A stretch of 64,000 nt of DNA from Asaia bogorensis. GTDB taxonomy: Bacteria > Pseudomonadota > Alphaproteobacteria > CACIAM-22H2. A model generated the notes under the pieces. The model had not been told where the DNA came from and made no database searches. It saw only the letters and a program-made list of their open reading frames with translations. The stretch lies in the NCBI GenBank assembly GCA_945901855.1, contig CAMDLT010000008.1:40743-104742 (forward strand). The letters are read 5' to 3'. Made by a program: the position numbers and the translations under genes. This document shows positions 50,392 to 53,743 of the stretch, one piece after another. Within the stretch, counting starts at the first letter, position 1. Each line of letters opens with the position of its first letter.

Positions 50392-50678
50392 AGGGCGAGG
50401 GGTCAAGCGGCGGATTTTCGGCGCAACCGCATGCTCTCGCAGGACATCGAAAATCTTGTCGTTCAAAAAGATGTGCGATCGCATTGTTGACTTCATTTTC
50501 CGATATGACGAATAGTCCAAATCGTCCGGGGTCCAGTCAAAAGGGCGGTTCATTGCGTGCAAAACGTACACCAAATTCTGTAATTTCTGAAATATAAGCT
50601 ACTGATCGTAGTTCTATTGTTAAGTGTATTATAAATATGATATGCAAACATATGAACCGTTAATGCTTTGGAAAACAA

Positions 50679-53321
50679 ATGTCTATATCAAACGAACTCC
50701 TTCAGTGGTCGCTTGAGCGACCGGATTGGCAGCGGGACGCTTTACGTCGATTTGCAACTCGACAGGACTTTTCGACCGAGGACGAAGGCGAGGTTATCTC
50801 GATTCTTAAGGCGGAGCACGGTGTCACCCAGCAAAAAACGGTGTTGGCGCTGCCCTTAGACGAAAAGCACTTGCCAGAAATTTCAGGCGGCGAATTTTCG
50901 GTTCAATTGGCGTCCTTAGGGAATTTAGCGAACGCGAATCGTTTGGCTGAGGGACAGGTGCTACGTTTTGCCATCGATGGGCTGACGGCGATCTACGGGG
51001 ACAATGGAAGCGGTAAATCTGGTTATGTCCGAATTCTCAAAAAAGTTTGCCGGACACGAGAATCTGATGTCGTTTTGCCAGATGTTTTTAGTGCTGGTGG
51101 CACGGGCGTTCCTACTGCAGAGATTCGTTATCGTTTGTCACCAATGGAGAAGGATCCTAAGTTAGAGACGTGGACTAGCGGCGGGGAATTTGCGGCAGCG
51201 CTGTCGCAGATATCCGTTTTTGATAGCCGCATAGCGTCCATCTCAGTGGACAAAGAAAACGAGCTGGCTTTCGTACCGTTCGGCTTGGATGTTTTGGACA
51301 AGTTGGGCGAGCTGTGTGGGCGGATCAAGGAGTCATTGACACTTGAGCGCAATCAGATCGCTCAGCGTATAGCCGACAGCCGGCTTGGATTTGGTGACGA
51401 CCAAGATATCGTGACCGCGCTCGACAAGATCAGCGCAAAGACTAACGACCACTTTCTGTCCAAAATGTCCACTTGGACCATAGCCGATGCAGCGCGCTTA
51501 GACGAAGTCCGCTTGTTGCTGAATGACCAGATCAATCAGGCGAAGCAGTTGAGGGCACGAAAGGCTCGTTGCGACGAGGCCCTAAGCAGGATAACGGTTG
51601 CAAAACAGGCCTTGGACGAGGATGCGGAAGTTCAGTTAAAGGCTACAGTAGCGGAAGTTGCCGCCGCCAAGCAGGCCGTCCGGATGCTGTCGATTGGGTC
51701 TTTTGCAAAAGAACCGCTTCCAGGGGTGGGTTCTGATCCCTGGGGCGTTATGTATGAGGCGGCAAGGGCATTCTCGGTACAGCAGGCGTATTCCGATCGC
51801 GAGTTCCCTGCGACTCAACGCGGTGACCGGTGCGTGTTGTGCCATCAGTCGCTTGATGACCAAGCTCGTGAGCGCCTTGATCGATTCGAGGCATTTATCA
51901 AAGCCGACGTGGAGGCGAGGGCTAAGGCGGCCAATGCGGCACTGGTTGAAATGCTAATTTCTCTTGATGCGGCTGTTGTTCATCTTAATTCAGTAGAGGA
52001 AGAACTGAGGGCTCCTCATCCAGATGATGGCGCGTGGTGCTCTGAGATGTTGATGCTTTCTCGCGCATTTATTGAGCGTGCTAACGCTTTGAAGGCCTCA
52101 GTGAGCAATGGTGACTGGTCGAAGTTGCCGATGACTCCTGTTTTTGTTCTCAAAGATACGGCGTTGTGGTCGGCTGAGTTGGAAGCTCGAGCTATGACCT
52201 ACGATGGTGCGCTAGACCCTGCCAAAAGGTCGGAGCTACTGGCAGAGCAGCAAAATCTGAAGGCGCGCAAGGCGTTTTCGGAGAATACAGCGGCAATTTT
52301 GACCCTGCGAAATCTTCTGATCGAAGATGCCGCCTACGAGAAGTGTTTAGGGGCATTAGCTACCAATAAAATATCACAGAAGCGCAAGGACATGGATGAG
52401 GCCCATGTTCAAGGAGCGTTGCAGACTAAGCTGATGGAGGAACTAGAGGCCCTGCGCTTATCATCCATTCCAATTAATCTTGGATTTAAAGTTGCAAAAG
52501 CTAAATCGCGGCATCAGATACAGCTGAGTAGCAACTTGACAACGGCCAAAGTTAAAGACGTGGTCAGTGAAGGGGAATATCGCGCCGTGGCTCTGGCATG
52601 TTTTCTTGCCCAAGTTCGGCAGCAATCGGACACGGCCGGAGTTATCGTCGATGATCCTGTGTCGTCTCTTGATCATGATCGCCGGGAATTGGTCGCCGAG
52701 AGACTGGCGAAAGAAGCTAAGAACCGGCAGGTCATCGTCTTCACGCATGATCTTGTCTTCTTCTTCATGCTACGAGCAGCCGCCGCCCAATTCCAAACAC
52801 CGTTCGAAGGGCGTAACCTCTATCGCGGTGCCGAGAGCTTTGGAGTTGTCGATCCCGTCGAGCCATGGAAGGCGAAGTCCCTAGCTCAACGTCTCGATTC
52901 TCTCGAGAAGGTTGATTTGAATAAACTTAGGGACCTCCATCACAAAGGGGGGGCGGAATATGATGACTATGCTCGATCTTTTTGTGATCGGTTGCGCGAG
53001 AGTTGGGAGCGGCTGATCGAGGAGGTCGTTTTCTGCGAGACGGTTCTCCGATTTCACCCGGCTGTCAAGACGCTGAACTTAGATAGTGTGGAAGTCAGCG
53101 ACGAAGTCGCAGATTACGTATATTGGGGGATGACGAAAATTTCGAAATGGACAGCCCATGATCCGGCGAGAGCCAGTGGCCTCAATCCGCCTACCCCAGA
53201 TGAGCTAATGGCGCATATTGCGGATATCCGAAATTGCGTCGCCAGAATTCAGGCGGATCGGAAAGTAACTTCTGACCGGCGAAAAACGCGCCGCAGTCCG
53301 CCCAGGGCCACCATGCTTTAA
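50679..53321 (+). CDS. ABC/SMC-type AAA ATPase (AAA_13/RloC-PrrC-like), putative solo defence-type protein with CxxC zinc-hook-like motif
   Basis: Walker A YGDNGSGKSGY (50997-51020), CVLC (51831-51842) in a predicted helical region, signature VVSEGEYRAVAL, Walker B/D-loop GVIVDDPVSSLDHDRR, H-switch IVFTHD; lower GC than neighbours. Confidence 0.85.
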   Translation: MSISNELLQWSLERPDWQRDALRRFATRQDFSTEDEGEVISILKAEHGVTQQKTVLALPLDEKHLPEISGGEFSVQLASLGNLANANRLAEGQVLRFAIDGLTAIYGDNGSGKSGYVRILKKVCRTRESDVVLPDVFSAGGTGVPTAEIRYRLSPMEKDPKLETWTSGGEFAAALSQISVFDSRIASISVDKENELAFVPFGLDVLDKLGELCGRIKESLTLERNQIAQRIADSRLGFGDDQDIVTALDKISAKTNDHFLSKMSTWTIADAARLDEVRLLLNDQINQAKQLRARKARCDEALSRITVAKQALDEDAEVQLKATVAEVAAAKQAVRMLSIGSFAKEPLPGVGSDPWGVMYEAARAFSVQQAYSDREFPATQRGDRCVLCHQSLDDQARERLDRFEAFIKADVEARAKAANAALVEMLISLDAAVVHLNSVEEELRAPHPDDGAWCSEMLMLSRAFIERANALKASVSNGDWSKLPMTPVFVLKDTALWSAELEARAMTYDGALDPAKRSELLAEQQNLKARKAFSENTAAILTLRNLLIEDAAYEKCLGALATNKISQKRKDMDEAHVQGALQTKLMEELEALRLSSIPINLGFKVAKAKSRHQIQLSSNLTTAKVKDVVSEGEYRAVALACFLAQVRQQSDTAGVIVDDPVSSLDHDRRELVAERLAKEAKNRQVIVFTHDLVFFFMLRAAAAQFQTPFEGRNLYRGAESFGVVDPVEPWKAKSLAQRLDSLEKVDLNKLRDLHHKGGAEYDDYARSFCDRLRESWERLIEEVVFCETVLRFHPAVKTLNLDSVEVSDEVADYVYWGMTKISKWTAHDPARASGLNPPTPDELMAHIADIRNCVARIQADRKVTSDRRKTRRSPPRATML

Positions 53322-53394
53322 ATGGTTCTACGTACTCGTCTAGATGTAAAAAATGAAGCTGTCTACTGTCGGACCGGAAAGAGTCAGTCTCCAA

Positions 53395-53424
53395 GGTAAG
53401 GAGTAGTCGTTGAAGCTCCTTACC
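53395..53424. repeat. Perfect 9-bp inverted repeat
   Basis: GGTAAGGAG - 12 nt - CTCCTTACC; no T-tract. Confidence 0.6.
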
Positions 53425-53647
53425 GCCGATCCGAAGCTGATCGAAAAATCAGAGCGGTGTGAGCTTCCGCCCCCAGTTCGTTCTTGACTCGTACGCAATC
53501 TTTAGTTACACTCAAAACCGATGGCAGTGTATCGCCATTGCGCTGTTTGACATGGTGAAGACTCCGAAAATTTCCGTGCGATTCCGTCGCGCGGGAAGAA
53601 CGGGAATGTTTTAAAATCAGGCATTTGGCGCGACAAGCTCGAAAAAA

Positions 53648-53724
53648 CGTCGCGCAGATGTCGCGTCTATGTCGCGCAGGAATCGCATCCATGTCGCGCA
53701 GATGTCGCGTCCGTGTCGCGCAGG
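53648..53724. repeat. Seven-unit 11-bp degenerate tandem repeat
   Basis: CGTCGCGCAGA|TGTCGCGTCTA|TGTCGCGCAGG|AATCGCATCCA|TGTCGCGCAGA|TGTCGCGTCCG|TGTCGCGCAGG. Confidence 0.85.
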
Positions 53725-53743
53725 GCGCGCTCGATCCTGCGAA

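What the first reader, a model, noticed from the sequence alone, without database searches (positions are those of the whole stretch)
50400..53743. Lower-GC islet with a solo zinc-hook-like ABC/AAA ATPase: best candidate for an undescribed defence system
Seen directly: base composition drops visibly between the GC-rich infB/phosphatase and cckA genes, and the segment holds one 880-aa ORF. Its nucleotide-binding motifs are split between the N-terminus (GDNGSGKS) and C-terminus (VSEGEYRAVAL, VIVDDPVSSLDHD, VFTHD), as in SMC/Rad50/RloC/PrrC-type ATPases. Established knowledge: proteins of this architecture (AAA_13; RloC, PrrC, PtuA of Septu, OLD-like) are recurrent anti-phage or DNA-damage sensors. 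Inference: the short N-terminal module (LLQWSLERPDWQRDALRRF...) and the C-terminal ~180 aa after the ATPase may carry the effector or sensor. No partner gene (HNH, TOPRIM or restriction subunits) is apparent, so it would be a single-gene system.
Basis: partly seen in the sequence, partly recalled or inferred. Interest (0 to 1): 0.75.

Follow-up and report, generated by a model that had tools for sequence, protein, structure and literature searches.

The report
Solo RloC-like tRNA-cutting defence gene
A horizontally acquired, single-gene anti-phage defence candidate: a Rad50-like DNA-sensing ATPase with a zinc hook joined to what is very probably a tRNA-cutting (HEPN/anticodon-nuclease) tail, so it is a divergent relative of the known protein RloC rather than a new kind of system.

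Summary
Window 50679-53321(+) encodes one 880-aa protein with a split ABC ATPase, in a 51.6% GC islet (rest of window 64.5 ± 2.1%, z = -6). It is an insertion: in six same-genus genomes the flanking phosphatase and CckA-like kinase genes lie 17-38 bp or 677-685 bp apart, without it.

The label 'undescribed' does not hold. PADLOC model PDC-S06 (phage-defence candidate) covers it end to end (E = 1e-176).

The new step is the effector. In 123 family members every sequence keeps a CxxC zinc hook (C385, C388) and, in the C-terminal helical domain, R773, E777 and H827. That is R-x3-E-x(48-52)-H, the published signature of the RloC/PrrC anticodon-nuclease triad. The AlphaFold model of that domain (pLDDT 92) resembles HEPN RNases: they dominate the better-probability Foldseek hits, although no hit is significant on its own.

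Homologues are sporadic, found on plasmids and in many phyla, and sit among defence genes. The best reading is a single-gene, DNA-break-responsive, ATP-gated, translation-disabling nuclease of the RloC type, in a deep clade with its own N-terminal helical module. tRNA cleavage, DNA-break sensing and phage defence are all inferred; nothing was tested biochemically.

The parts
50392..53743 (.). Lower-GC inserted islet between the phosphatase and the CckA-like kinase
   Evidence: GC 51.6% vs 64.5%; absent between the same two genes in six same-genus genomes
50679..53321 (+). 880-aa RloC-like zinc-hook ABC ATPase with HEPN/anticodon-nuclease-type C-terminal domain (PADLOC PDC-S06)
50679..50903 (+). 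Family-specific N-terminal helical module (residues 1-75; W10 and W17 nearly invariant), function unknown
50997..51020 (+). Walker A (GDNGSGKS, residues 107-114)
   Evidence: K113 invariant in 123/123
51831..51842 (+). Zinc-hook CxxC (C385-V-L-C388) in the loop between the antiparallel helical arms
   Evidence: both Cys invariant in 123/123; loop between helices 353-370 and 394-408 in the AlphaFold model
52563..52595 (+). ABC signature (VSEGEYRAVAL, residues 629-639)
52641..52751 (+). Walker B/D-loop (DDPVSSLD) to H-switch H690 (residues 655-691)
   Evidence: D658, D659, D665, H690 invariant
52797..53318 (+). C-terminal all-helical domain, HEPN-like, predicted RNase (residues 707-880)
   Evidence: AlphaFold pLDDT 92.2, pTM 0.83; HEPN structures among the Foldseek hits
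52995..53009 (+). Catalytic-triad positions R773 and E777 (R-x3-E)
   Evidence: invariant in 123/123; matches the RloC/PrrC motif
53157..53159 (+). Catalytic-triad position H827, preceded by K820 ([KR]x4-6H-type HEPN motif)
   Evidence: H invariant in 123/123; K or R at 820 in 114/123

Best explanation
The gene is a solo, horizontally acquired, RloC-like anticodon nuclease, a divergent ABC-HEPN protein of the PDC-S06 group. The two ATPase lobes pair into a Rad50-like head from which a coiled-coil arm with a CxxC zinc hook projects. By analogy with RloC, linear DNA or double-strand breaks (from infection, restriction or genotoxic stress) trigger an ATP cycle in the head, and the arm relays this to the C-terminal HEPN domain. 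That domain then cuts tRNA (or another RNA) through R773, E777 and H827, which shuts translation and aborts phage growth. Shown here by sequence and structure prediction: split head, zinc hook, invariant triad, helical HEPN-like tail, mobility, defence-gene context. Inferred: tRNA as substrate, DNA breaks as trigger, anti-phage outcome.
For: Full-length PADLOC PDC-S06 match, E = 1.3e-176. Pfam AAA_13 in 20/20 members scanned. C385 and C388 and R773, E777, H827 invariant in 123/123 homologues at about 30% identity; spacing E-x(48-52)-H. The published RloC motif is R-x3-E-x36-52-H plus CX2C, 658-897 aa, and mutating any triad residue abolishes tRNA cleavage (PMC2610378). RloC-type AAA_13 proteins taken from other genomes carry a CxxC and, where complete, exactly one R-x3-E-x36-44-SH, and align to this family over zinc hook, arm and C-lobe with 99.7% HHalign probability (residues 347-729). 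PADLOC groups both clades and their PrrC similarity under PDC-S06. The C-terminal AlphaFold model is a helical bundle; HepT (7bxo, prob 0.91), ST0689, AF_0298, SO_3166, TT1696, Csx1 and Csm6 are among the Foldseek hits. The full model matches Rad50/SMC heads, E to 3e-10. Homologues sit among RM, Mza, YhcG, Hhe-like, BREX and AbiE genes: 270 PADLOC families hit by 145 neighbours versus 11 by 126 control proteins. RloC is activated by DNA breaks (PMC3874168).
Against: The isolated C-terminal domain has no significant profile similarity to PrrC, and its alignment to RloC beyond residue 729 is low-confidence. No HEPN Foldseek hit is significant alone (E 0.3-1.3). The HEPN arginine is mostly lysine here. 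The clade is joined to RloC-type proteins by a very long branch. No phage-challenge data for this clade were found in the papers held, and in this genome the gene has no defence neighbour.
Confidence: 0.78

Rival explanations
1. An ABC-HEPN defence RNase that is not an anticodon nuclease: same switch, but the HEPN domain cuts mRNA, rRNA or non-anticodon tRNA sites, or modifies RNA as some HEPN toxins do.
For: The HEPN fold is shared by mRNases (RnlA, LsoA), Csm6 and other toxins (PMC3710099); the tail has diverged beyond profile detection from PrrC.
Against: The specific R-x3-E-x(48-52)-H arrangement together with a zinc hook is that of RloC, not of the generic Rx4-6H HEPN families.
Confidence: 0.14
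2. A housekeeping Rad50/SbcC- or RecF-like DNA-repair ATPase.
For: Structural matches to Rad50 heads; SMC_N Pfam hit; DNA-repair exonuclease/YhaN pairs near some homologues.
Against: 9 of 385 class genomes and 18 of 399 phylum genomes, none of the 10 other same-genus genomes examined; inserted between core genes; plasmid-borne in 264 records; near-identical copies across classes; the C-terminal invariant triad has no role in Rad50.
Confidence: 0.04
3. ATPase subunit of a two-gene nuclease system (Septu PtuA, Lamassu LmuB, or with the YhaO/YhaN pair), with the partner lost or encoded elsewhere in this genome.
For: LmuB similarity (E = 5e-11; Foldseek 9hqu); YhaO within 10 kb in 13 and YhaN in 8 of 96 loci.
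Against: No partner family recurs in more than 13 of 96 loci, and the pair lies on either side and either strand; the similarity to LmuB is over the SMC-like region only; the protein carries its own invariant triad; no AAA_27/YhaN was found in the own genome.
Confidence: 0.04

Closest known systems
RloC (zinc-hook anticodon nuclease; Geobacillus kaustophilus, Acinetobacter baylyi; PMC2610378, PMC3874168)
   Same: Split Rad50-like ABC ATPase, coiled-coil arm with CxxC zinc hook, C-terminal R-x3-E-x(n)-H domain, 880 aa within the 658-897 range, usually solo, mobile
   Different: Own deep clade; 75-aa N-terminal helical module before the ATPase, not seen in the AAA_13/RloC-type proteins compared; E-H spacing 48-52 (36-44 in the RloC-type proteins compared); Ser before the His in only 14 of 123; tail not alignable with confidence by profile
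PDC-S06 (PADLOC-DB 2.0 phage-defence candidate)
   Same: Model PDLC04891 covers 857 of 858 positions, E = 1.3e-176; PDLC04893, 04888 and 04892 also match
   Different: PDC-S06 is a label without mechanism; it pools this clade with RloC-type AAA_13 proteins
PrrC anticodon nuclease
   Same: ABC ATPase followed by a C-terminal R-x3-E...H nuclease domain
   Different: PrrC is half the size, has no zinc-hook arm, and sits inside type I restriction loci that silence it
Rad50/SbcC and Lamassu LmuB
   Same: Same head and arm architecture by fold comparison
   Different: They act with separate nuclease subunits (Mre11/SbcD, LmuA) and lack the C-terminal RNase domain

Membership tests
RloC | ABC ATPase split by a long helical insert (Rad50-like) | tested here: met
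   Walker A at 107-114, signature to H-switch at 629-691, helical arm between them; Rad50 heads top the Foldseek list
RloC | CxxC zinc hook in the middle of the insert | tested here: met
   C385 and C388 invariant in 123/123
RloC | C-terminal Arg-x3-Glu-x36-52-His triad | tested here: met
   R773, E777, H827 invariant in 123/123; x48-x52
RloC | Length 658-897 aa | tested here: met
   880 aa
RloC | Homologous ACNase (HEPN) domain by sequence profile or fold | tested here: inconclusive
   No significant HHalign hit for the isolated tail against PrrC; HEPN structures among Foldseek hits but E about 0.3-1.3
[quoted passage not shown] activated by linear DNA or breaks; inhibited by Zn | not testable with these tools
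   Needs biochemistry
PDC-S06 (PADLOC) | Match to the curated profile over its length | tested here: met
   E = 1.3e-176, positions 1-857/858
PrrC | 341-416 aa, no zinc-hook insert, linked to type I restriction genes | tested here: not met
   880 aa, zinc hook present, no hsd genes beside it
Septu / PARIS / OLD-type | HNH partner (PtuB), or TOPRIM nuclease domain or subunit | tested here: not met
   No TOPRIM domain; recurrent neighbours contain neither
Anti-phage defence system | Protects against phage when expressed | not testable with these tools
   Only genomic association available

The most novel reading that the evidence does not exclude
The clade is a separate, mechanistically distinct branch of ABC-HEPN defence RNases. 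Its family-specific N-terminal helical module would be the infection sensor, and it would sometimes work together with a YhaO/YhaN (SbcD/SbcC-like) pair that processes DNA ends and hands over the break signal.
Probability: 0.15. Interest if true: 0.65.

Novelty: new member of a known kind. Interest (0 to 1): 0.35.

Why it matters
PDC-S06 is a mechanism-free label reported in bacterial defence surveys (for example 38 of 100 P. aeruginosa strains, PMC10855318). The invariant zinc hook plus R-x3-E-x(48-52)-H triad gives this clade a specific, testable mechanism (ATP-gated, zinc-hook-controlled RNA cleavage) and names the residues to mutate. It also extends the RloC architecture to a deep clade found across many phyla.

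Tried and rejected
Single-sequence scan of genome contigs with short exact peptides found nothing; an alignment query found 578 relatives, 80 kept. Isolated C-terminal domain against PrrC by HHalign: no significant match. Sequence search of solved structures gave only head-domain and coiled-coil hits, and a PrrC-type protein found no solved PrrC. Attempts to reach the ABC-HEPN protein APECO1_4465 in E. coli APEC O1 failed: that record is not searchable by protein, and one guessed region did not hold it. That control is weak, because simple ORF calling in GC-rich DNA also yields false ORFs. Small reading frames at 50404-50574(-) and 53423-53692(-): no Pfam match, treated as remnants or noise. 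Promoter and terminator scans were at chance level. OLD/TOPRIM, Septu and housekeeping repair readings considered and rejected (see rivals). The N-terminal module was sought in 150 phylum genomes and seen only in ORFs of about 900 aa, as expected for this family.

Full report
Observation. The islet 50392-53743 has 51.6% GC against 64.5 ± 2.1% for other 3.3-kb stretches of the window, z = -6.1. It is below every one of 132 sample windows taken elsewhere in the genome, and third-position GC is 0.55 against 0.81-0.84 in infB and the neighbouring kinase.

Insertion. The two flanking genes, a His_Phos_1 phosphatase and a CckA-like hybrid kinase, were sought in the 10 other same-genus genomes held. 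In six of them they are neighbours: 17-38 bp apart in G006, G007 and G008, and 677-685 bp apart in G002, G003 and G004, where a different short gene (213 aa, weakly phosphatase-like) occupies the gap. None of the 10 has the ATPase (one weak partial hit, in G004, covers only the ATPase motif region). The family occurs in 9 of 385 class genomes and 18 of 399 phylum genomes, is plasmid-borne in 264 records, 130 of them conjugative, and has no match in the annotated phage collection, though full-length copies occur on some IMG/VR viral contigs. The tree mixes phyla, with near-identical copies in different classes, for example L081 (Pseudochelatococcus) and L076 (Pseudomonas).

What it is. PADLOC's PDC-S06 model covers the protein end to end (E = 1.3e-176). 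PDC-S06 is a 'guilt-by-embedding' phage-defence candidate without validation in the papers I could read (PMC10855318; PMC11514479; PMC11811056). Pfam sees AAA_13 in all 20 members scanned. An alignment of 123 full-length homologues has few invariant columns. They include Walker A K113, the signature and Walker B/D-loop residues and H690; the two cysteines C385 and C388 of a CxxC; and, beyond the ATPase, G722, R773, E777 and H827. The spacing is R-x3-E-x(48-52)-H, with K or R at position 820 in 114 of 123. Davidov and Kaufmann defined RloC by a Rad50-like split ABC ATPase, a CX2C zinc hook and a C-terminal R-x3-E-x36-52-H triad. They showed that changing any triad residue abolishes tRNA cleavage and that changing the hook cysteines enhances it (PMC2610378). 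All sequence features of that definition are met.

Independent support. Proteins fetched from other genomes by Pfam AAA_13 carry a CxxC and, in every complete one, exactly one R-x3-E-x36-44-SH, so by the published definition they are RloC-type. Profile-profile comparison aligns this family to them with 99.7% probability over residues 347-729, hook on hook. PADLOC pools both clades in PDC-S06, and some of its models also recognise PrrC, tail included. AlphaFold gives a confident full model (pLDDT 89.7), which Foldseek matches to Rad50, SMC and Lamassu heads. The C-terminal domain modelled alone (pLDDT 92.2) is a helical bundle. HEPN proteins (HepT 7bxo, ST0689, AF_0298, SO_3166, TT1696, Csx1, Csm6) are prominent among its better-probability hits, but no hit is significant alone (E >= 0.16). 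RloC and PrrC tails are HEPN domains according to Anantharaman et al. (PMC3710099).

Where the case is weaker. The isolated tail does not match PrrC by profile, and its alignment to RloC past residue 729 is low-confidence even though H827 falls on the RloC histidine there. The tree joins the clade to RloC-type proteins by a very long branch, warned as a long-branch join. It also has a 75-aa N-terminal helical module with W10 and W17 nearly invariant, which lies ahead of the Walker A lobe and was not detected outside this family. So 'works like RloC' is well supported; 'is an RloC' rests on signature and architecture, not on continuous homology of the effector domain.

Context. Recurrent neighbours in 96 homologous loci are an SbcD/YhaO-like metallophosphoesterase (13 loci), type II methylases (9), integrases (9 and 7), a YhaN-like AAA_27 ATPase (8), DUF4011/DUF3320 (PDC-S37/Hhe-like) proteins (5), YhcG/PDC-S02 nucleases (5) and Mza B and C (4 each). 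BREX and AbiE genes appear in annotated plasmids. A sample of 145 neighbours hits 270 PADLOC families, against 11 for 126 proteins from elsewhere in the window's genome; the control is rough because of simple ORF calling. YhaN is far more frequent near this gene than expected from its background rate (8 against about 0.06), but the pair lies on either side and either strand. It therefore looks like a frequent island companion rather than a subunit. In the window itself the gene stands alone.

Mechanism. Steps supported by prediction: a split ATPase head, an arm with a zinc hook, and a HEPN-like tail with an invariant triad. Steps inferred by analogy with RloC: linear DNA or breaks and ATP turnover switch on the tail (PMC3874168); the tail cuts tRNA in the anticodon loop; translation stops and phage growth is aborted. 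I put 0.78 on this, 0.14 on an ABC-HEPN RNase with another substrate or chemistry, and the remainder on repair or multi-gene readings.

Verdict. The finding is real and correctly flagged, but it belongs to a known kind: an RloC-like member of PDC-S06. What is added is the identification of the zinc hook and the catalytic triad as fixed in the whole clade, which makes a mechanism-free candidate directly testable.

Noticed in passing
96 homologous loci, e.g. L016, L018, L049, L053, L110, L117: A YhaO (SbcD-like phosphoesterase) and YhaN (AAA_27) pair lies within a few kb of the RloC-like gene far more often than its background rate predicts (8 YhaN loci, about 0.06 expected); it might be a defence module of its own. 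PADLOC had no dedicated model for it.
   Followed up: partly
window 53649-53735: Tandem repeat with an 11-bp phase (TGTCGCGCAGA-like) at the 3' edge of the islet; 17 further related copies are dispersed in the genome. A mobile or REP-like element that may mark the insertion edge.
   Followed up: partly
L216, L217, L218 (gap between phosphatase and kinase): In the three same-genus genomes with the most similar phosphatase gene, a 213-aa weakly phosphatase-like, possibly secreted protein sits exactly where the islet is here, so the spot may be a small variable site.
   Followed up: partly
L005, L041, L043: Some family members are split by a stop or frameshift (G087, G707), possibly decayed or costly genes.
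   Followed up: no
L024 (Klebsiella pneumoniae plasmid) and similar records: A homologue travels on many Klebsiella and Pseudomonas conjugative plasmids, in one examined record beside a tmexCD-toprJ efflux cluster.
   Followed up: no
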